Origin: Sporodiniella umbellata
Lineage: Eukaryota > Mucoromycota > Mucoromycetes > Mucorales > Rhizopodaceae
NCBI GenBank assembly: GCA_025677835.1
Contig: JAIXMR010000041.1
Span: forward strand, 1 to 57,500
Direction: 5' to 3'
DNA length: 57,500 bases
The notes beneath the pieces were generated by a model. That model saw only the letters and a list, made by a program, of their open reading frames with translations, was not told the DNA's origin and ran no database searches. Of the stretch, positions 36,842 through 49,047 are shown piece by piece (the first letter of the stretch is position 1; the number at the start of each line of letters is the position of its first letter). The position numbers were made by a program, and so were the translations under genes.

Positions 36842-39800
36842 TCATTGGAAATATTTCCAAGCTTCTACAGCTGGGTCAAAGTTTTCAACCTCTATTACTC
36901 TCAATACTGGCTTTTTTCTCACAAAAGTATTGAATACATTTTCACCTTCTCTAATACAAAGAGGAAGCAGGTCTATTTGAGAAGCTGTACCGTCCTCTCC
37001 TAAAGCGCGATTAGCCTTTGATTTGACCAAAGACCCATACAGGTAAATCTGTGGTTTTTCCGCGTGATGGCATATATATTTTAGTAGATGATAGTAATTC
37101 ATGTCTTCAATATCTGCATCACTGTCTTCTTCCGAATTTTCGTTGTCTTCAAACTTTTCATTTAATTTTGAGTACTTTGTTCTTTCTTGATCACTAAATG
37201 AGATTTCGCCTTCTTTAAAAGCAATCCTTTTCAGCTTTTTCTTTTGCTTCTCACTCAATTGTAGCAAGTTAAACAGGTTACGATCACCATCAACAAATGC
37301 CTGTGCAATACCTGTTCCATCACCTATTTCGATAACAGCTGAGGCTAGGCATACTTTCTGCGATTTCAAACAAGATTCGGGGCAGACTCCTTCTCTCACA
37401 ACTAATTTACAAAAAGTACATACAAATTTTACAGTAAGGTTTTGGAAACTTTTAACAGAACAAGTGATTCGTATTGTGGCTGGTAAAGAGCATTCAGACT
37501 TCTTGTATAAATCCGAAATGAGCTTGCTTTTAGGATAGGGTGCTGTCGGTATGCTTTCTTTTGCCACGCATATAGTCTCAATTTCTACTGTAGTCCACTC
37601 ATTACATATCAAATAGCGTTTTCCAGACAGACTAAAGCCAGGAGGGCGTAGAAGATTTCTGAATTTTACAAAGGTACCAACTATCAGGCCCAAAACATAC
37701 TCGGTGTTTTTTGAGGTAAAATAAACGTCAATGGTTTCGAGAGTGTTGCATTGTCGGATCCGCGCTACTAACTTTTGAGTATCACATCCTATGCCGACAC
37801 CGAATTTTTTAAAATCTGCCAAAGCTCGAGTATTCTTTTTTTTTTTTTCTTGAATAAAACTTTTTGAAACGAGGATGCCATTCATATCCATTGTTCGATT
37901 TTTTTCGTCATCGTATACCATATGTTCTTTACTTGCAGATATAAGGTCTAGTGTACTGATTGATCTTCTCGGATTATAGTAAATCCCGGTATTTAGTTGA
38001 GCGTAATCAAATTCAACAGTTTTAGAAATATCAATCCACGGTTCTCTTTGTCTATAAATAGGGTATATTCTATGTGTATTTGAGTTGAACACCATTCGGT
38101 TTTGGTTTAAAGGCCCTTCAATGACATACCATTTTAAGGGGTATAGCATATTTTTGTATTTAAGACCCCCTTTAATCGAATTGAGCTCAATAACCATGCT
38201 TTTCTTGACGCTTTGGTTTGTATTGATGGGATAGAAAACCACATCTAGTACCGACCGCATACAAGATGCATGCGCTTTAGAAGAAAGAATCTTGGAAGGA
38301 GATATACTGCTGATATACATAACATGATATATGCCCCTTTGTAGTGTACAAGTATGTATTTTTGGGATGAAAAAATGGGATACAGAAGAGTTCGAAACAA
38401 TTGGCCGGCAAACAAAAGTTAGCTCTGGATGCTCAGGACCATGAATCAGAATCATGTCGGTCACATCACAGCAAAGGTATTCATGCCATAACACGGTCAC
38501 TGTGCCGTTTGCTGTGTAAGACAAGTCCTCTTTAACCCACTGCGCCTTTTTAAATATATACAAACCATCAGAAATAGGTATTTCCGATAGACATGCTATT
38601 TTCATTTGTATTTTGGTATTTTTGTCGTTGAGATAAATTTTGCCATCGTCTGCTGTAAACAAAAGCCCAAAAATAGGACAGCGAAGACCTTCATCTAGTT
38701 CAGAAATCAAGGTATATATGCTTGGTCTATCAATAGAGTAGTATCCTCCTATATGCTGAGAAACGTTGACTTCGTTTGCGTTATTAGATAAATAATCTAT
38801 AGCTATAGATACCGGCAGGCAGTGGTTTATGTTAAGTAGTGGTTGGTTGTGTGAATGATTAAATACATTGGCTATGGGTCGATCAACTGTAGTGCACTTG
38901 ATTTCGTTGCTGAGAAATTGAATGGCCAAGTTTGGTATTTCTTTTTCTCGACTGTTTACGTTGATATCGTATAGTAAGCAATCTGTGAGCTTTCTCATAA
39001 TCGTAAGAAATCCAGGAGCGTCGTTGAAGTGTATTATTAGTGACGTACATATTTCTAGTATACGGAAAACATCTATCAAATATAAACAGATAAGTTTTCT
39101 AAAGCAAAAAGAGTCAGGAAAGCGAAGTGAGGTTACCTAAAATATGTAAATGAACAATTTTGTTATACACATCAATCAATAGTTCAGTAGAAGCCCACTG
39201 ATGTATGGTCTGTACAATATCGCAATGAACAGGGAAAGAAAGTATTTGTAAATCACTTCTTGAACATGCAATTACGACTCCATATATTTTCTGATTGTCT
39301 ATAGACTGATAAGAACTCGAGCCCCACAAGTTTTCAAATAAATTGCTATTATGACTTTTGTAAGCTTTAATTGAAACTCGATGGACATGGTGAAGTCTCA
39401 ATTTAGTCGAGACACGAAAAGGCCTAAGAGCATTGTATTTGGGGCATTTAAATAAACAGATAATTTCACTGTTATTCACTTCGTATACGCCGAGAAGAGT
39501 ATCAACAACTCGTGTAATGTAAGCATCTATGGTAGTATTTTCGTGGCCGTATTTCATTACTCCAGAGACGTTTGTGTTTAAAGCTTGAAGGGCATTCTCG
39601 TATTGGCTTGGTGTTATCATTTGGACAGATGATATATCCTCGTCATATTCGAATAGAGACATAAGACCTTCTTGCGTGTCAAAAGCAGAAGATCGAGTCA
39701 GATGATTAAAAGCGTAGAGGGATCCAACACAAAACATGTGATAGTATTCAACTAGGGCCTCTGCTCTAAACATGATTGCTGCTGAAGGTGTTGAGCTATT

Positions 39801-40319
39801 TTTGAACGCGAGTTGTACGAAAAACGTTGTGGGTAAATCCAAGCGAGTAAAGATTTTCGACACGCTAACAATTTTCCCTACTATATGTATACTTGTGTCT
39901 TCAACAACAGTCGTACTGCTTTCAGGAGTATGGAACATTACATTTTCTTCTAAAGAGCTTTCAAAGCTTTGTTTATCAAATTTTAGGCATCTGTATAGAA
40001 TTGGTTGATCTTCGTTAGACGCTTGGAACACGTCTAGCACTTTGAATTCTAAAAACTGAAGGTTGTTCGTTTCACAGTTGATAAAATTCCATCTTTTGAT
40101 TATGGCAGGGATGTTAAAAAACTCTGGGCGCATAAGATCTACATTGCAATGAATCGATTGCTGGGTTTTTGGATCAGTCAGTAGGATTGTTTCTTTTTCA
40201 TTAGGTTCACTGTCTCCATTTTTTATGATCGTAAGTTCCCCTTTCAAAAAAGTATCTGTTATAGAAAAGCTAGTGCTGTGTCCAATAGCAAGCAGCTTTT
40301 CAACAGTCAGTAATTCCAT
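36842..40319 (-). CDS. CST telomere complex subunit CTC1-like protein
   Basis: Two exons: 40319-39137 and 39072-36842 (1,137 residues), joined in phase (HILDVFRILEIC). The size is close to vertebrate and plant CTC1. The protein is a long chain of beta-rich, OB-fold-like segments without enzymatic motifs. Near the C-terminus, about residues 915-985, sits an OB fold with an inserted zinc ribbon (VCTFCKLVVREGVCPESC), then SAVIEIGDGTGIAQAFV, the CTC1 signature. An acidic linker (ENSEEDSDADIEDM) follows. CTC1 with STN1 and TEN1 binds single-stranded telomeric DNA and recruits DNA polymerase alpha. Primary sequence is poorly conserved in this family, so the call rests mainly on the C-terminal zinc-ribbon OB fold and the length. 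Cdc13-like ancestry is possible. Confidence 0.7.
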
Positions 40320-40798
40320 TTGTGTATGACGAAAAGAAAAAAAAAAAAAAAACGAAAAATAAATGGTTAAAACTCTCATGTCGCGGCTAACCAATTTTGT
40401 TTTTAGAGCTTGAAAGGTGTTCAGAAAGAAAAACGCGCTCATTCACTCCAAGCAGGTTGTGTACATGCTTAACAAAGCATACTTTTCTGAAGAAGAAAAA
40501 GACGGTGAATGTACGATCTATTTGAGTTAATTTCTACGCTTATAAAAAAACAAATATTTTTGTTTGTTTAGGCCGAAATATTCTATATGAAACGAGGCTT
40601 ACTCTCACAAATATTTACTACTAACACCAACAATTATGCCAGTAGAGTTTGGCGATTTATACAGGGTATTTGGGTACTTCCATTAGAGTCGGCTACGCTT
40701 TATAAGTTTTTCGACGCGTTGAAGTAAATACAGTTGCAAAACAGAGATGAAAACAAAAACGATATTTTACTAAATACAAAATCGATAGTGATATTTAT
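40320..40798. other. intergenic, CTC1 promoter side and SDR 3' side
   Basis: It contains a possible short plus-strand gene described separately (40465-40727). An A19 run lies just upstream of the CTC1-like ATG. Confidence 0.5.
40465..40727 (+). CDS. possible short spliced gene of unknown function
   Basis: An ATG at 40465 opens MLNKAYFSEEEKDG. A donor (GTGAAT) follows at 40505 and an acceptor (TTTGTTTAG) ends at 40571. Behind it 40572-40727 is open for 51 codons (EIFYMKRGLLSQIF, RFIQGIWVLPLESATLYKFF) and ends in TAA. However the phase-1 donor does not match the frame of that second exon. Joined as written it would give a 30-residue product only. Either the upstream exon is different, or one frame is chance. 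It is divergent from the CTC1-like gene. No family recognised. Confidence 0.25.
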
Positions 40799-43096: not shown

Positions 43097-46000
43097 TCAG
43101 TTATGCGATTTTGTTAGCATAGCCTCTTTTAAAAAGGGATGCTTTAGGGCTTCAGCCGCCGATGGACGTTTAGCGTCAATGAGTTGTAGACAACTTTTTG
43201 TAAGATCAAGAGCAAGGAGATAGTCATTTCTGTCCCATTTTTTAACAGTCTCTCCGTTAAATTGTTTACACAGCCCATCCATGTCAATAGGGTCTTCAGG
43301 CATGTCAGGTATATTGGTCTTTATATTTCGACCTAAATTTAAAAAACGGTTACAAAACGCACAGATTCTGAGTAGTTTATCTCACCATAAAAGGTAGCAA
43401 AGTCGTGAACTTGTTTTACACCAAATGTAGTCATCAGTTCAACAATTCCGGCCGCACTGTCTTCAGGATCAAAGTATGGGTATAGGTTGCTCAAAAAGCT
43501 TATAAGAATAACACCGACTGCCCATATATCCATAGCTAATGAATGCAATGTTATTTTTTTTTTTTTTCATATACTTTATGTCTTTTACCTGTTGTTTGTC
43601 TTATGGAGTTTAGATATATTTCTGGTGCTCTGAAAGATCTGGTTCCTGAGCGGTCCACTGATATGTATTTTCTATAAAAAGAGCGTATTCAGACACCAGT
43701 TCAAAAGTTGTTTCTGTCTATGTTATTACTACCTTCTGTCGTGTATAAAATAGCCAGCGGGTCCGTCTTGGGGCTGTGTATATATGGGATCAGTGGCAGT
43801 TATTGGTTGCCCTGGTTTGTGTATCTCAAGATGGGTTGATCGCTATGGAACAACATTATTACCTTGCAGGTTTTGCTGCGATCGTATTTACCTGTGCTAA
43901 GCCAAAGTCGCCAAGGTACCCCATCTTTGTTTTTCTATTATAAAGAAAGTTACCGGGCTTGACATCGCGATGAACTATTCCTCTATCGTGAGCACACTTT
44001 AAACCTATAAGCATTTCTGATATATAGTGCTTTAAATCCAGCAATGACATCGTGGGATATATATCCTAGAAAATATGTAAGAAACATAAAATTCTAGAAA
44101 CATCTTAACAACATACTTCAAAATGATCGAACTCTATATATGGAAGGACAAGGTATGTGACATCCTCATTTCTAAAAGCAGTGATCATGGGTGTAATACA
44201 TGGTAGTCCTCTAAAAATAATGTTAGACACTCTTTATGTTACAGGCAGTATATAATTCAACCTTAAGTCTGCTAGACATGAAATCTCGTTGGCAACTCTT
44301 CTAGGCGAGCTAATGCCATATATTAGTTTGATTGCTACATAATGATGGTTTCCATCAAACGAGCTTTCAAGCTTTTTCTGAAGAGTCCAGGGCATGTATT
44401 TTTCATACAGAAGATCGTGGGCTCTGTAAACTTTACTAAAGGTACCTATAAAGAGTGATAAACTAATTAGGTCGAATTTACACACGCACCAAAAAGAAAA
44501 ACAAAAAACAAACCTCGCCCTGCCCGATCCAGTAATGTATAATATTTTTTCAGTTCAGGGAACTGTACATTGATTATGTCTATTTCGCCCTGAATTCTCT
44601 CATTTCTTTCTTGTGTGGCTATAGCATCTGCATCTGGATTTTTTTCTACTTTCCTACTTTTTGTGACTTTTTCCTTGTGGACTTGATCTTCTTCGTTTTT
44701 GAGCGCTTGTAGAGCGTATTCATTTGGTTTACCCATCATCCAGTTTTCTACTTGGTTCATTGCTTGCTTTTCAGTTTCCTCAGACATTCTGTAGTTGTTG
44801 CCTTGAGAAGAGTGATCTGCCGTATCAGCAATAATTATATCTTCTGTAAAACTCATGGGGATAGAACCATCAATCGTTGATATAGGCATTTCATCGCTCA
44901 AGATGGATTCCATAAACACAGTTTCATTACCAAACTTTGTTTTGTCTGTTTCTTCAAAATTTACATCACTCTCTGAGCGTGTATGGAAGTCGCTCATGAC
45001 AGATCCGTTTACGTTACTGTTGGTTTGGTTTCCCTTCGAATTCAAGCTGAGAGCCTTTTTGTTTTCCAAATCGTTTAAAACAACCGTATTGTTCTGTACT
45101 TTTTCATGCATACTGCCCCCTGATACTATGTACATAAACAGATATCAATATGCTGTAAAAAAAAAACAAAAAAGTACCTGTTTCAACTACTAAATCTGTC
45201 TCTAAGAATTCTTTTGGTATTTTTTCAACATTTTTATCTGAGACTTTTGGATAAAATATATTTGAGTCATGGAGTTTGTTCCTCTTTTTACTGTTAACTT
45301 ACAAGTTGTGTTTTCCAGCTCCGTTATGCACATCTTTGTGTTTTCTTTCTCTAGCTTTTTTTGTGACAAATCAATTTTATACTGCTCTTTTGTTTGTAAA
45401 GCCGAACTTTCTGCAAACTGGCTTATTTGTAGATCCTCGGCAGACGTTGACAAAGATGCTCCAAGCCCTGGTTTCTCAAGAACGTCAATAACTATACCAG
45501 AGGACTTTAAACTATCTTTTCGTAGCGATTCATCCATCAGCTCGTCCTCACTGAGTACTTTGGATATCTTTTGGCTTGTTTCTTGCTCTTCTTTGCTTAG
45601 GTCTCTCTTTACTTCGTCTACTGACAGTATGTCGATTATAGACTCGCCACTCTCGTTAGCCTTGAGTGCACTAGGGCTATCCAATGTCGAAAGATCCACC
45701 ATGGAAACATCTCCATCAGAATCTCTTATGGTTTGATGCTCTGTAATACAGCCTGTTGCGACTGCTTCTACTATAGCTTGCTTTTCTAAAGATTCAATCA
45801 CTTCCAACGCTGACGCATCAGCCATATCTACATCCCTATCTATAGTACTTGGCAGCTGTTCATTTTCAATTATAGAACTCTCTTTTTCGACCTCCCTGAT
45901 TGCCTTGACTGCCCTATGAATTGTTGTTCTTGTTGCTCTGGACCTGGTAGGTGGCTTAAGTACTCTAGGTTGCTTTTTCACCTTGGGTGTTTCAAGTGTC

Positions 46001-49000
46001 TTAGGCTCCTCAGGCTTTGGGGGCACTACAATCTCTTCAAGAGCTTTGGGATTTTTAACAGTCATTTTCGCTGTAGGTTTTTTAATAGTCTTTTTCGGTG
46101 TAGCCTTTGACGGTTTGCTCTTGGTTTCCGTTTTTTTGTTACTTCTTGTGACCCTTGTTGTTGCCATCTCTGTATCACTTTCCGTTGAATCAGAATTTGA
46201 AGCATCTATTTTTTTTTTAGAATTCTCTTCATCTTCTTGAATACACTCATCCATATCCTCATCAGTCTTTGAGATTCGGTTAACCGCCATCTGTTTTTTA
46301 GAACTTCTTTTGTTTTTCTGAACAGCCTTTTTTACATTCTCGGAAGCTTTCGAGATTTGTCTCACAGCTACCTTCTTTTTAGAACCTTTTTTGCTTTCTT
46401 TAACAGCCTGCTTAGTATCTTCAGCGGATTCCGAGTTTTGGCGCGACCTTGTTCGTCTTTTTGTAACTTTTTCTTCTTCTTCAGATTCCACGACATTCTC
46501 AATAACTTTTGAGCTCTGGCTTGCTTTTGTTCGTTTTTTAGGGCTCTTCTTGACTTCATGAATAGTCTCCTGTACGTCTTTGACAATTTTTGCGCTCTGA
46601 CTCGCTCTAGTTATTCTTCGGGGGCTTTCTTCAACTTCTTGAATAAGTTCTTTTACACTTTCAACAGGTTTAGAGCTTTGGCTTGATTTTGTTTGTTTTT
46701 TGGGGCTCGTTTTGACTTTTTGAATAGGCTCCTCCACGCTATCAGTGGCCTTTATACTCTTCTGCGCTCTGGTTATTCTTTTAGGGTTCTTCTCAGCCTC
46801 TTGAATAGAGAGTTCCGAGCCTTCAGTAGTCTTTAGGCTTCGGCTTGTTCTTGTTTGTCTTTTGGAGTCCTTTTCGTCCTCTTGGATGGGCTTATTTATA
46901 CTCTCATGGTCATTTGTGTCTTTGCATGCTCTGCTTGGTCTCTTAGAACCTGTTTCAACTTCCTGTATGCATTTTTCCATAGCTTCAGTAACCTGGTGCT
47001 CACAGCTTGCTCTAGTTTGCCTTTTAGGGCTTTTTTGGCCTTCTTCCATGGCCTCAGCGTCTTTTATACTTTGACGGGTTCGCTTCCTTGTCTGCATTAC
47101 TGTACTCTGAGGTTTTGACTCAGACCGAGCTACTGGTGCTGCAATAGCAGTTTTGGGTTCTGTTGACTCTTGACATGTCTCTATTGATTCTGAATCTAAA
47201 GAAGCTTTAGAAGGCACATGCTTTTTAAGCAAAACTGAAGAAACTGTGTCTTCTTTTAGTAGTGTTTCTGGTGAATTGATAGTAGCTTCCTCTTCTCCGG
47301 AACGAGTTTCTTTAGGTGCCACAGGCGAAATGAGTGAATCCTCCACAGGAGTAATTTCTTGTTTCATCAAACTACTTGATAATTTTGGGGAAAGCGTGTC
47401 TTTTTCTGGCAGAACTTCAGTTGATACTGTGGTGAGGGTTTCTGTCTTTGAAACGTTTTCTGACAACATTGAGAGGTGCTCTTCTTTCTGCTGTGATAGC
47501 TCCGTAGGCATATCCAATTGTTCTAAAGAAAGTTCAGACATGCCATCAGAAACCGCTTCCTTCGACAATAAAGAAGAAACATCTGTTTTTAGCACATTTT
47601 CTTTCGATGCTGGTGGAAGTATATTTTTCTCGAGTATATCCTCCAAAGGGGTTGTCTCACTTTCCAACAGATTGTCTAACAAAGCAGCCAAGTGCACTTC
47701 TTTTTCTATGGATTTTTCAAATAAAGCAGGGGAAGTGGCCCCTTTTTCCATAACATTTTCAGCTATTGGCGTATTGTTCTCGGGTAGGCTTTCCAATATA
47801 ATGTTAGATGTTGCTTCCTTTTTCATTATGTTTCCAGCCTCTGATGTTTCTTTCTCTAGTGAACTTCCCAACGGAATAGAAGCCACAGGTTCTTTTTCCT
47901 GGAGATGTTCTAATAAAGAAAAGGTAGATACATCCATCGATCCATGCTCTGTTGAAACGTTCAATGGTACCTCTTTCTCCAACAGTTCTTTTGTTAAATT
48001 AACTGAGGCTCCCTCTTGGTTTAAAGATTTCTCGGGCAGCACTACAGAATCTTCATATTTCTCTAAAGCAATAGGTGACAAAAACGGAGGCGACACTTCC
48101 TCTAAATATTTTTCTGACAATTTTACATTTTCCTCTGATATGGCTGTCGACAAAGCTGCAGACGCCATTTCTCCTAAAGCTTTTTCTGGCGCCATTAAAG
48201 AGCTCTCGTTTTTCTCTAATGCAGCTGTTGATGATTGTTCAGACAAGACTTTTTCTGGTAGGAAGTTCTCTACTGATTCTACACAATCCATTGCTTCACC
48301 TGGAAAAACACTAGACTTATCCGTTGATAGTGATTGTTTTTCTGGGAGTCCTTCTGGTAGATCTCCGTTTGATATCAGGATATCGTCAGTGTTAATGTGC
48401 TGCCCTTTCGTCGCTTTATGTAAAACAACTTTAGGGATACTATCAGCATGATCCAATTGTGTTGTAATCGGGATTTCAGCGCAATTTTGATTTAGTAAAG
48501 TGACTTTGGTATGCGGCAGCTCGTGGATAGTGGTAGTCGTAGACGGTTTCGTTGCTGAGCAAGTATAGTGATCTAGCGGAGGAACGCCAGTAGAGTCGTG
48601 AAGAGGGTTTTGATAGGAATCAAAAAAATTGGAAAATATAGGAGAATAAGACGATGTATGATACTGAGAGGAGTCGTTATTTGGTGTAATAGGCGCAGGT
48701 GGGGGCGGAAAAGGAGGCGAACATTGAGGTGTAGACGGAAGTGAATTATAAGGGTTTCTCTTAATATCTTTCCGCTTTTGGGTAAGAAAAGATTCGCCGG
48801 AGTAGTTTGACTCTACAATTATAGGTTCTATATTAGAGTTTTTTGTACTGTAATAGTTCCTGGCGAAGCTTCCATTAAAACAGTCATTGGAGAATGAGTC
48901 GTAGGCTTCCAATAGAGACGTCTCGTTTTTTAGCGAGGCAAAAAGGAAATTGCTCGCAGGCCGCTTCTTTTTGTGAATGGGCGGCAAGTGCCTTGGTGTA

Positions 49001-49047
49001 CTGGTGGCATTGGTTGTGGCTACAACTGGAATACCCCGTCTGTCCAT
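43097..49047 (-). CDS. CDC7: Cdc7-type kinase (DDK catalytic subunit) with a giant repetitive N-terminal extension
   Basis: Ten exons keep phase (1,817 residues): 49047-45303, 45243-45178, 45125-44514, 44445-44262, 44210-44117, 44065-43892, 43842-43733, 43671-43589, 43535-43386 and 43332-43097. The last eight encode the kinase: glycine loop AGRGTFSKVYRA, VAIK, catalytic loop HRDVKPGNFL, DFGLAQ, and GTRSFRAPEI after a kinase insert, all diagnostic of Cdc7, which with Dbf4 phosphorylates Mcm2-7 at origins. The first exon alone adds about 1,248 residues of Ser/Glu/Lys-rich sequence with two repeat arrays. It joins through a perfect GTAAGT donor and two small in-phase exons. Usual Cdc7 proteins have roughly 500-650 residues. 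Two neighbouring genes or an internal start remain possible. Confidence 0.85.
46230..47090 (-). repeat. protein-level tandem repeat, basic units, in the CDC7 first exon
   Basis: About nine degenerate units of some 30 residues. Each has a basic-Thr-Arg block and an acidic helix, for example SPKRQTRAS then IQEVE, SPRRITRASQS then IHEVK, and SPKKRTKASQS. Spacing is regular at about 95 bases. Ser-Pro-Lys/Arg sites recur, which resemble CDK targets. The DNA has diverged, so the array is old. Confidence 0.8.
47230..48330 (-). repeat. protein-level degenerate repeat, LEK/LPEK units, in the CDC7 first exon
   Basis: About 18-20 irregular units of roughly 20 residues built around Leu/Pro-Glu-Lys (ALEKNE, VLPEKSL, ELLEKEV, VLPEKDT) alternating with small and hydrophobic residues. 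There is no known fold. It precedes the basic array in the protein. Confidence 0.7.

What the first reader, a model, noticed from the sequence alone, without database searches (positions are those of the whole stretch)
43097..49047. Cdc7 kinase gene with an apparent 1,250-residue repetitive N-terminal exon
Seen: a 3.7 kb open frame ends in a perfect GTAAGT donor and joins in phase, through exons 45243-45178 and 45125-44514, to an unmistakable Cdc7 kinase. Known: Cdc7 proteins are usually about 500-650 residues and depend on Dbf4. Inference: the extension, with many SP-K/R sites and basic repeats, could tether the kinase to chromatin or replace part of the accessory subunit. I know of no described Cdc7 of this form.
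Basis: partly seen in the sequence, partly recalled or inferred. Interest (0 to 1): 0.8.

Follow-up and report, generated by a model that had tools for sequence, protein, structure and literature searches.

The report
Cdc7 kinase paralogue with giant tail
In a mould of the bread-mould family, an extra copy of the kinase that starts DNA replication carries a roughly 1,450-residue tail that is a real part of the gene, begins with a stretch shared with related moulds, and sits in a genome that also has a compact copy of the kinase and two copies of its partner.

Summary
A ten-exon minus-strand gene (49047..43097; introns 49-68 nt, GT..AG) encodes 1,817 residues: a 1,248-residue first exon joined in phase to an intact Cdc7-type kinase. 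The public Sporodiniella umbellata model (P0008, 1,544 aa) has the same first joins but stops in intron 4, before the catalytic loop, so it shows no kinase domain. The fusion is real: the first ~61 residues (MDxRGIPxV...SLLEAYDSFS) match the start of 12 of 22 Mucorales-type Cdc7 proteins tested (best E 1e-28). The extension is therefore old; its length here is a lineage expansion, including a 27-residue basic repeat. Best reading: a Cdc7 paralogue ('clade B') whose tail docks and tethers it, probably still used with a Dbf4. Transcripts, binding and function are untested. New variant of a known kind.

The parts
45303..49047 (-). exon 1: N-terminal extension, 1,248 complete codons (ATG at 49047)
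   Evidence: open frame; same start and same joins in public model P0008
48865..49047 (-). conserved N-terminal block, residues 1-61: MDxRGIPxV ... SLLEAYDSFS
   Evidence: BLAST match at E <= 1e-3 in 12 of 22 chosen relatives, best 1e-28; strict motif RG[IVL]P[ILV]V in the first 60 aa of 19 of 249 held proteins: 17 named Mucoromycotina Cdc7 models (one of them, P0008, is this gene) and 2 unnamed metagenome proteins
46168..47034 (-). array of about eleven units of a 27-residue repeat, basic box xSPK[KR]xTRASQS plus acidic IQEVE end (residues 672-960; units cut by hand: nine of 27, one of 26, one partial of 20)
   Evidence: autocorrelation peaks at lags 27 and 54; nine 27-mers mean pairwise identity 0.34 against 0.09 shuffled, max 0.12 of 300; 81-bp tandem repeat 46499-46733
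45178..45243 (-). exon 2
   Evidence: in-phase join with exons 1 and 3; present in P0008
44514..45125 (-). exon 3: end of the extension, pre-kinase region and start of the kinase glycine loop
44878..44925 (-). pre-kinase motif ETVFMESILSDEMPIS (residues 1338-1353) shared with R. stolonifer and, in part, R. arrhizus
   Evidence: BLAST over 1328-1455 with R. stolonifer P0005 (E 6e-18) and 1334-1455 with R. arrhizus P0002 (1e-11)
44262..44445 (-). exon 4: kinase N-lobe (GTFSKVY, VAIK, ANEIS); followed by a donor GTTGAA where the public model reads on and stops
44117..44210 (-). exon 5: kinase
43892..44065 (-). exon 6: kinase catalytic loop HRDVKPGN and DFG
43733..43842 (-). exon 7: kinase insert region, short here
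43589..43671 (-). exon 8: RSGTRSFRAPE activation segment
43386..43535 (-). exon 9: kinase C-lobe
43097..43332 (-). exon 10: end of the kinase and stop codon

Best explanation
This is one gene for a Cdc7-type (DDK catalytic) kinase of a Mucorales paralogue group ('clade B'). The catalytic motifs are all present, so it is probably an active kinase, and probably one still activated by a Dbf4-type subunit, of which the genome has two (inferred). The roughly 1,450-residue N-terminal part is, by inference, a disordered tail with a conserved docking end (RGIPxV plus a short helix SLLEAYDSFS), a rapidly changing repeat-rich middle whose basic SPK[KR]/TR boxes would bind DNA or chromatin electrostatically, and a conserved stretch just before the kinase. 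It most likely works as a tether that brings a specialised DDK to a particular place or partner, beside the compact Cdc7 (480 aa) of the same genome. Shown: gene structure, homology, paralogy, motif conservation, two genes with Dbf4 hallmarks. Inferred: disorder, tethering, Dbf4 pairing, specialisation.
For: Gene model, and the same joins in a public model. Kinase type by sequence and fold. N-terminal block matched by BLAST in 12 of 22 relatives: R. stolonifer, Mucor, Thamnidium, Choanephora, Parasitella, a metagenome protein and, weakly, Apophysomyces; the strict motif alone also in Umbelopsis, Absidia, Lichtheimia, Fennellomyces and metagenome P0146. Clade B, 21 rows on one side of a 100/100 branch, the genome's 480-aa Cdc7 on the other. 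Three Cdc7-like kinases in the genome. Two genes with Dbf4 hallmarks, both zf-DBF matches over the Pfam cut-off (36.0 and 58.8 bits against 24.8), on two sides of a 100/100 branch, each side also with R. arrhizus, R. delemar and R. microsporus rows. In the model of relative P0120, tail residues 1-290 have pLDDT mostly 28-39 per ten residues, with rises at 1-10 (49), 41-60 (53-60) and 241-260 (47-48). Basic repeats.
Against: No RNA data. BLAST of the extension found nothing at E <= 1e-3 in 9 of 22 relatives, among them Lichtheimia, Absidia, Umbelopsis, Fennellomyces, P0146, three R. microsporus models and R. stolonifer P0004. Of the 21 clade B rows only 10 have the strict N-terminal motif. Of the other 11, five are short models (377-518 aa), one is partial, one (P0124) seems by eye to start late, and four (P0001, P0002, P0003, P0004) are long and lack it. 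One R. microsporus model of this kinase is only 391 aa (P0119). The compact Rhizopodaceae copy also sits on a long branch (0.94; clade B 0.75), so which copy does the essential replication work cannot be told. The 27-residue repeat was not seen in the relatives read (by eye), so the middle's tether role rests on composition. Dbf4-B scores below the Pfam cut-off for motif M (20.1 against 25). No partner was tested.
Confidence: 0.6

Rival explanations
1. Two neighbouring genes: exon 1 is a separate gene ending at 45202, and a compact Cdc7 starts at an ATG at 45135 or 45111.
For: Without splicing, exon 1 stops at 45202. ATGs lie at 45135 and 45111. One R. microsporus model of the kinase is only 391 aa.
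Against: Only 66 bases would separate that stop codon from the ATG at 45135. The N-terminal block sits on the same polypeptide as Cdc7 in relatives with tails of 336-610 residues. The public model of this very gene joins them. Residues 1-181 have no second copy in the genome at E <= 0.001.
Confidence: 0.04
2. Both forms exist: the fused long kinase, plus a short kinase from an internal start, or an exon-1-only protein when intron 1 is retained.
For: An in-frame ATG (MHEK..., 45111) lies near the start of exon 3, and a stop lies shortly after the unspliced donor. Public models of relatives vary in length.
Against: No transcript data; variable public models are more simply annotation errors.
Confidence: 0.2
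3. The tail replaces Dbf4: it folds back on the kinase and activates it without a partner.
For: The tail has a conserved short helix and a conserved stretch next to the kinase.
Against: Two Dbf4-like genes are present. Exon 1 has no BRCT, motif M or DBF zinc finger match. In the relative P0120 the tail is not predicted with confidence.
Confidence: 0.05
4. The middle of the tail is neutral: a relaxed, repeat-expanding segment with no role beyond its conserved ends.
For: Tail length before the glycine loop ranges from 336 to 1,472 residues among clade B models with the motif. Different repeats occur in different genes (R. stolonifer P0005, by eye; C119 with a 468-bp repeat).
Against: TR[ASRT] boxes recur in six of the seven long Rhizopus models (2, 2, 3, 6, 7 and 8 copies; none in P0004, no shuffle control for these). 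These models came from a search limited to about 1,000 residues or more, so their length is partly selected.
Confidence: 0.3

Closest known systems
Cdc7 (DDK catalytic subunit; budding yeast Cdc7, human CDC7; fission yeast Hsk1 by recall)
   Same: Kinase fold, catalytic motifs, best sequence and structure matches
   Different: Tail of about 1,450 residues; short kinase inserts; member of a separate clade beside a compact copy
Spo4-Spo6, the second DDK-like kinase complex of fission yeast, used in meiosis (PMC5368709, passages read)
   Same: A second Cdc7-like kinase and a second Dbf4-like subunit in one fungal genome
   Different: Probably an independent duplication (not tested: no S. pombe sequence was in the trees). 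That Spo4 has no long tail is recalled, not tested. No expression data here
Long Cdc7-like database models of Rhizopus, Mucor, Thamnidium, Choanephora, Parasitella and one metagenome protein (P0001-P0007, P0120-P0125, P0127, P0129, P0132)
   Same: Same kinase clade for those placed in the tree (P0006 and P0007 were not placed); 10 of these 16 carry the strict N-terminal motif
   Different: Shorter tails, other repeats; most named only 'hypothetical', 'unnamed' or 'kinase-like', two named cell division control protein

Membership tests
Cdc7 / DDK catalytic subunit | closest to Cdc7 among solved kinases by sequence | tested here: met
   the top four distinct sequences are Cdc7/CDC7, ahead of a Trichomonas kinase and CK2 (best 60 of 1,254 shown)
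Cdc7 / DDK catalytic subunit | complete catalytic motifs (G-loop, VAIK, HRD, DFG, APE) | tested here: met
   all found in order
Cdc7 / DDK catalytic subunit | Cdc7 fold | tested here: met
   relative P0120, not the window protein itself, was folded; top 11 PDB hits are CDC7-DBF4 entries
Cdc7 / DDK catalytic subunit | activation by a Dbf4-type subunit | not testable with these tools
   two Dbf4-like genes exist; binding not tested
Cdc7 / DDK catalytic subunit | phosphorylates MCM2-7 to fire origins | not testable with these tools
   needs experiment
Second, specialised DDK (Spo4-Spo6-like) | paralogue of both kinase and regulatory subunit in the same genome | tested here: met
Second, specialised DDK (Spo4-Spo6-like) | meiosis-specific expression and partner choice | not testable with these tools
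   no expression data held
Cdc7-Dbf4 single-chain fusion | Dbf4 domains (BRCT, motif M, DBF zinc finger) in the extension | tested here: not met
   no Pfam family at E <= 1 in the 1,248 residues of exon 1

The most novel reading that the evidence does not exclude
Rhizopodaceae, and perhaps many Mucorales, have two parallel replication-kinase systems: a compact Cdc7-A with Dbf4-A, and a tailed Cdc7-B with Dbf4-B, the second addressed to its own chromatin sites by an ancestral N-terminal docking motif and an expandable basic repeat tail. This would be a division of labour in origin firing or meiosis that I found in no paper of the held library.
Probability: 0.35. Interest if true: 0.68.

Novelty: new variant of a known kind. 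Interest (0 to 1): 0.5.

Why it matters
Cdc7-Dbf4 is usually treated as one essential complex per cell. A fungal lineage in which the kinase has duplicated, in which one family has also duplicated the regulator, and in which one kinase copy carries a huge tail with an old docking motif, would let one ask how replication or meiotic DDK tasks are split and what the tail adds. It also flags that public models of this kinase can be cut short: the one for this very gene loses its kinase domain, and R. microsporus models of it range from 391 to 1,187 aa.

Tried and rejected
Rejected: two separate genes (homology and the public model); Dbf4 fused into the tail (no domain; two separate Dbf4-like genes); a Pfam identity for exon 1 (none). 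The 401-aa plus-strand frame opposite exon 1 (47246-48451) was taken for a mirror frame of the coding strand, without a test. PMC2699053 (Rhizopus oryzae genome, passages read) reports five 'Cdc7' homologues, but by its own text that name is the fission-yeast septation kinase (Cdc15p homologue), not this kinase; set aside. Where clade B branches is not settled: grouping it with 12 A-type rows of its relatives is not rejected (p-AU 0.186), and the root is not inferred. Dbf4 relatives came back only from Rhizopodaceae and two unnamed metagenome proteins (11 proteins; only the 7,999 candidates sharing most words were scored), so whether Dbf4-B accompanies Cdc7-B in Mucor and others is unknown. 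Left out of the 55-row kinase tree among the Mucoromycota hits: P0006, P0007, P0008, P0011, P0151, P0153, P0209 (partial, truncated or close relatives of rows kept); most non-Mucoromycota hits were not used. One search scored only 7,994 candidates and listed 120 of 243. No RNA evidence could be had, and the exon-1 protein was never used alone as a database query (the three protein searches went to the kinase twice and to Dbf4), so a free-standing relative of exon 1 is not excluded by search.

Full report
OBSERVATION. The window (36% G+C) lies on contig 135 of a 25.9-Mb, 198-contig genome. A public protein, P0008, named BY458DRAFT_210819 of Sporodiniella umbellata (Mucorales, Rhizopodaceae), is identical to the gene model over 1,536 residues, and three other S. 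umbellata proteins (P0133, P0138, P0239) come from contigs whose lengths equal those of contigs 119, 114 and 117 of this genome. The source is very probably that species. Extending them gives ten exons, nine introns of 49-68 nt with GT..AG ends, and 1,817 residues. The kinase occupies about residues 1462-1817 and has its G-loop, VAIK, HRD, DFG and APE motifs. Its closest solved sequences are yeast Cdc7 and human CDC7.

THE PUBLIC MODEL IS TRUNCATED. P0008 has the same start and the same exon 1-2-3-4 joins, then reads on at donor GTTGAA and ends after eight more residues. It has no Pfam hit at E <= 0.1. Whether its joins rest on RNA data I cannot tell.

IS THE FIRST EXON REALLY PART OF THE KINASE? 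By homology, yes. BLAST of residues 1-1455 against 22 chosen relatives gave matches at E <= 1e-3 in 13, of which 12 cover the N-terminal block. R. stolonifer P0005 matched over 1-205 (E 1e-28) and 1328-1455 (6e-18), and P0007 likewise. Seven proteins of Mucor, Thamnidium, Choanephora, Parasitella and a 'R. stolonifer' record (P0121) matched from residue 1 to 57-70 (E 3e-12 to 2e-8). Metagenome protein P0125 (5e-5) and two Apophysomyces proteins (1e-4, 2e-4) matched weakly. R. arrhizus P0002 matched only next to the kinase (1e-11). Nine gave nothing. The strict motif RG[IVL]P[ILV]V occurs in the first 60 residues of 19 of 249 held proteins and was not found further in: 17 named Mucoromycotina Cdc7 models, one of them this gene and some from the same species, and two unnamed metagenome proteins placed among them. 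In the 55 Mucoromycota-centred proteins listed, 19 have it and 36 do not. In the window's genome a DNA pattern for it matches twice, once here, against five matches of the reversed control, so it is not a common genomic word. Residues 1-181 occur once in the genome. Of the 21 clade B rows 10 have the strict motif; most others are short or partial models, but four long Rhizopus ones lack it.

ANATOMY OF THE TAIL. Exon 1 has no Pfam family at E <= 1. Residues 201-600 are acidic and 701-1000 basic. Residues 672-960 hold about eleven units of a 27-residue repeat, cut by hand: nine full units have mean pairwise identity 0.34 against 0.09 in shuffles (max 0.12 of 300), and the DNA shows an 81-bp period. 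SP[KR][KR] occurs 4 times in residues 1-1461 (0 of 1000 shuffles as high), [ST]P[KR] 8 (2 of 1000), CDK-type [ST]P.[KR] only 5 (93 of 1000); sites inside repeat copies are not independent. A model of the shorter relative P0120 (26-row alignment) is confident in the kinase only; tail residues 1-290 are mostly at pLDDT 28-39 per ten residues, with rises at 1-10 (49), 41-60 (53-60, helix 47-59) and 241-260 (47-48). This fits a disordered tail with short docking motifs but does not show binding.

PARALOGUES. A six-frame search of the genome with the kinase finds three Cdc7-like genes: this one, one on C114 (P0138, 480 aa, 41% identical) and one on C119 (P0133, partial, 54%). In a 55-row tree the window gene lies in a 21-row clade B, one side of a 100/100 branch, with Rhizopus, Mucor, Thamnidium, Choanephora, Pilobolus and others; the 480-aa gene lies on the other side with R. 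delemar. C119 groups with R. stolonifer P0004 (96/90, long branch), and the frame upstream of its kinase holds a 468-bp repeat, 2.7 copies at 99%. Both clade B and the compact Rhizopodaceae copies sit on long branches (0.75 and 0.94), so neither can be called the unchanged one. Where clade B branches is open (p-AU 0.186 for joining it to 12 A-type rows). The motif is present on both sides (Lichtheimia, Absidia, Apophysomyces, Umbelopsis, Fennellomyces on the A side), so it most likely precedes the duplication and was lost in the compact Rhizopodaceae copy.

DBF4. Family searches find a Dbf4-type gene on C117 (motif M 5.6e-9, zinc finger 9.3e-6). A search with its protein finds a second, weak place on C18 (E 1e-4), where the DNA encodes a BRCT-like part, motif M and a DBF zinc finger. 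In hand-joined models both zinc fingers pass Pfam's cut-off (58.8 and 36.0 bits against 24.8), both BRCT matches pass narrowly (22.4 and 22.8 against 21.3), and motif M passes for C117 (38.3) but not for C18 (20.1, cut-off 25). With 11 database relatives they fall on two sides of a 100/100 branch, each with Sporodiniella, R. arrhizus, R. delemar and R. microsporus. By eye, the B side shares a C-terminal tail. So the kinase tail does not stand in for a missing Dbf4; if anything, both DDK subunits have duplicated in this family.

HOW IT LIKELY WORKS. Shown: one gene, a Cdc7-type kinase with intact catalytic motifs, an old N-terminal block, repeats, paralogues of both subunits. Inferred: the kinase is active with a Dbf4; the N-terminal block docks on an unknown partner; the basic repeats help hold the enzyme on chromatin; the copy has a specialised task. 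The nearest precedent is fission yeast Spo4-Spo6, a DDK-like pair expressed in meiosis (PMC5368709, passages read).

LITERATURE. Searches for Cdc7 with Mucorales (1 paper), Cdc7 with N-terminal extension and Dbf4 (25 papers, 20 listed, listing only), Dbf4 with Rhizopus (1, listing only), and Cdc7/Dbf4 gene duplication in fungi (1, listing only) showed no description of this. The Mucorales paper (PMC2699053, passages read) uses 'Cdc7' for a different kinase. Only open-licence papers were searched.

NEIGHBOUR. Downstream, the 745-aa frame 39079-36842 matches Pfam CTC1 of the telomere CST complex (40.3 bits against a cut-off of 27.8). It is not part of the finding.

Noticed in passing
window 36842-40442, minus strand: Two adjacent long open frames just downstream of the kinase gene. 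The 745-aa one (39079-36842) matches Pfam CTC1, a subunit of the telomere CST complex (40.3 bits, cut-off 27.8); the 442-aa one (40442-39114) has no Pfam match at E <= 0.1 and may be the same gene's upstream part (guess by position).
   Followed up: partly
L020 2457-3705 (G000:C119, about 140256-141504): A 468-bp tandem repeat, 2.7 copies at 99% identity, inside the open frame upstream of a third Cdc7-like kinase: a recent expansion beside another clade B kinase.
   Followed up: partly
G000:C18:52874-54056 (L025): An apparently intact second Dbf4-like gene with a C-terminal tail shared with Rhizopus relatives; no public S. umbellata protein for it came back.
   Followed up: partly
P0121 (public R. 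stolonifer model, 808 aa): Groups with Choanephora cucurbitarum at 100/100 in the kinase tree, unlike the other R. stolonifer copies: possible contamination or mislabelling of that assembly.
   Followed up: no
P0138 (G000:C114) residue 273: The compact Cdc7 of this genome has HKD in place of HRD in the catalytic loop; the R. delemar models P0134 and P0137 also lack an HRD[IV]KP match.
   Followed up: no
P0010 (public Apophysomyces model, 1,072 aa): Carries short-chain dehydrogenase domains after the kinase (PF13561, PF00106), while A. ossiformis P0155 ends after the kinase: probably two neighbouring genes merged in that model.
   Followed up: no
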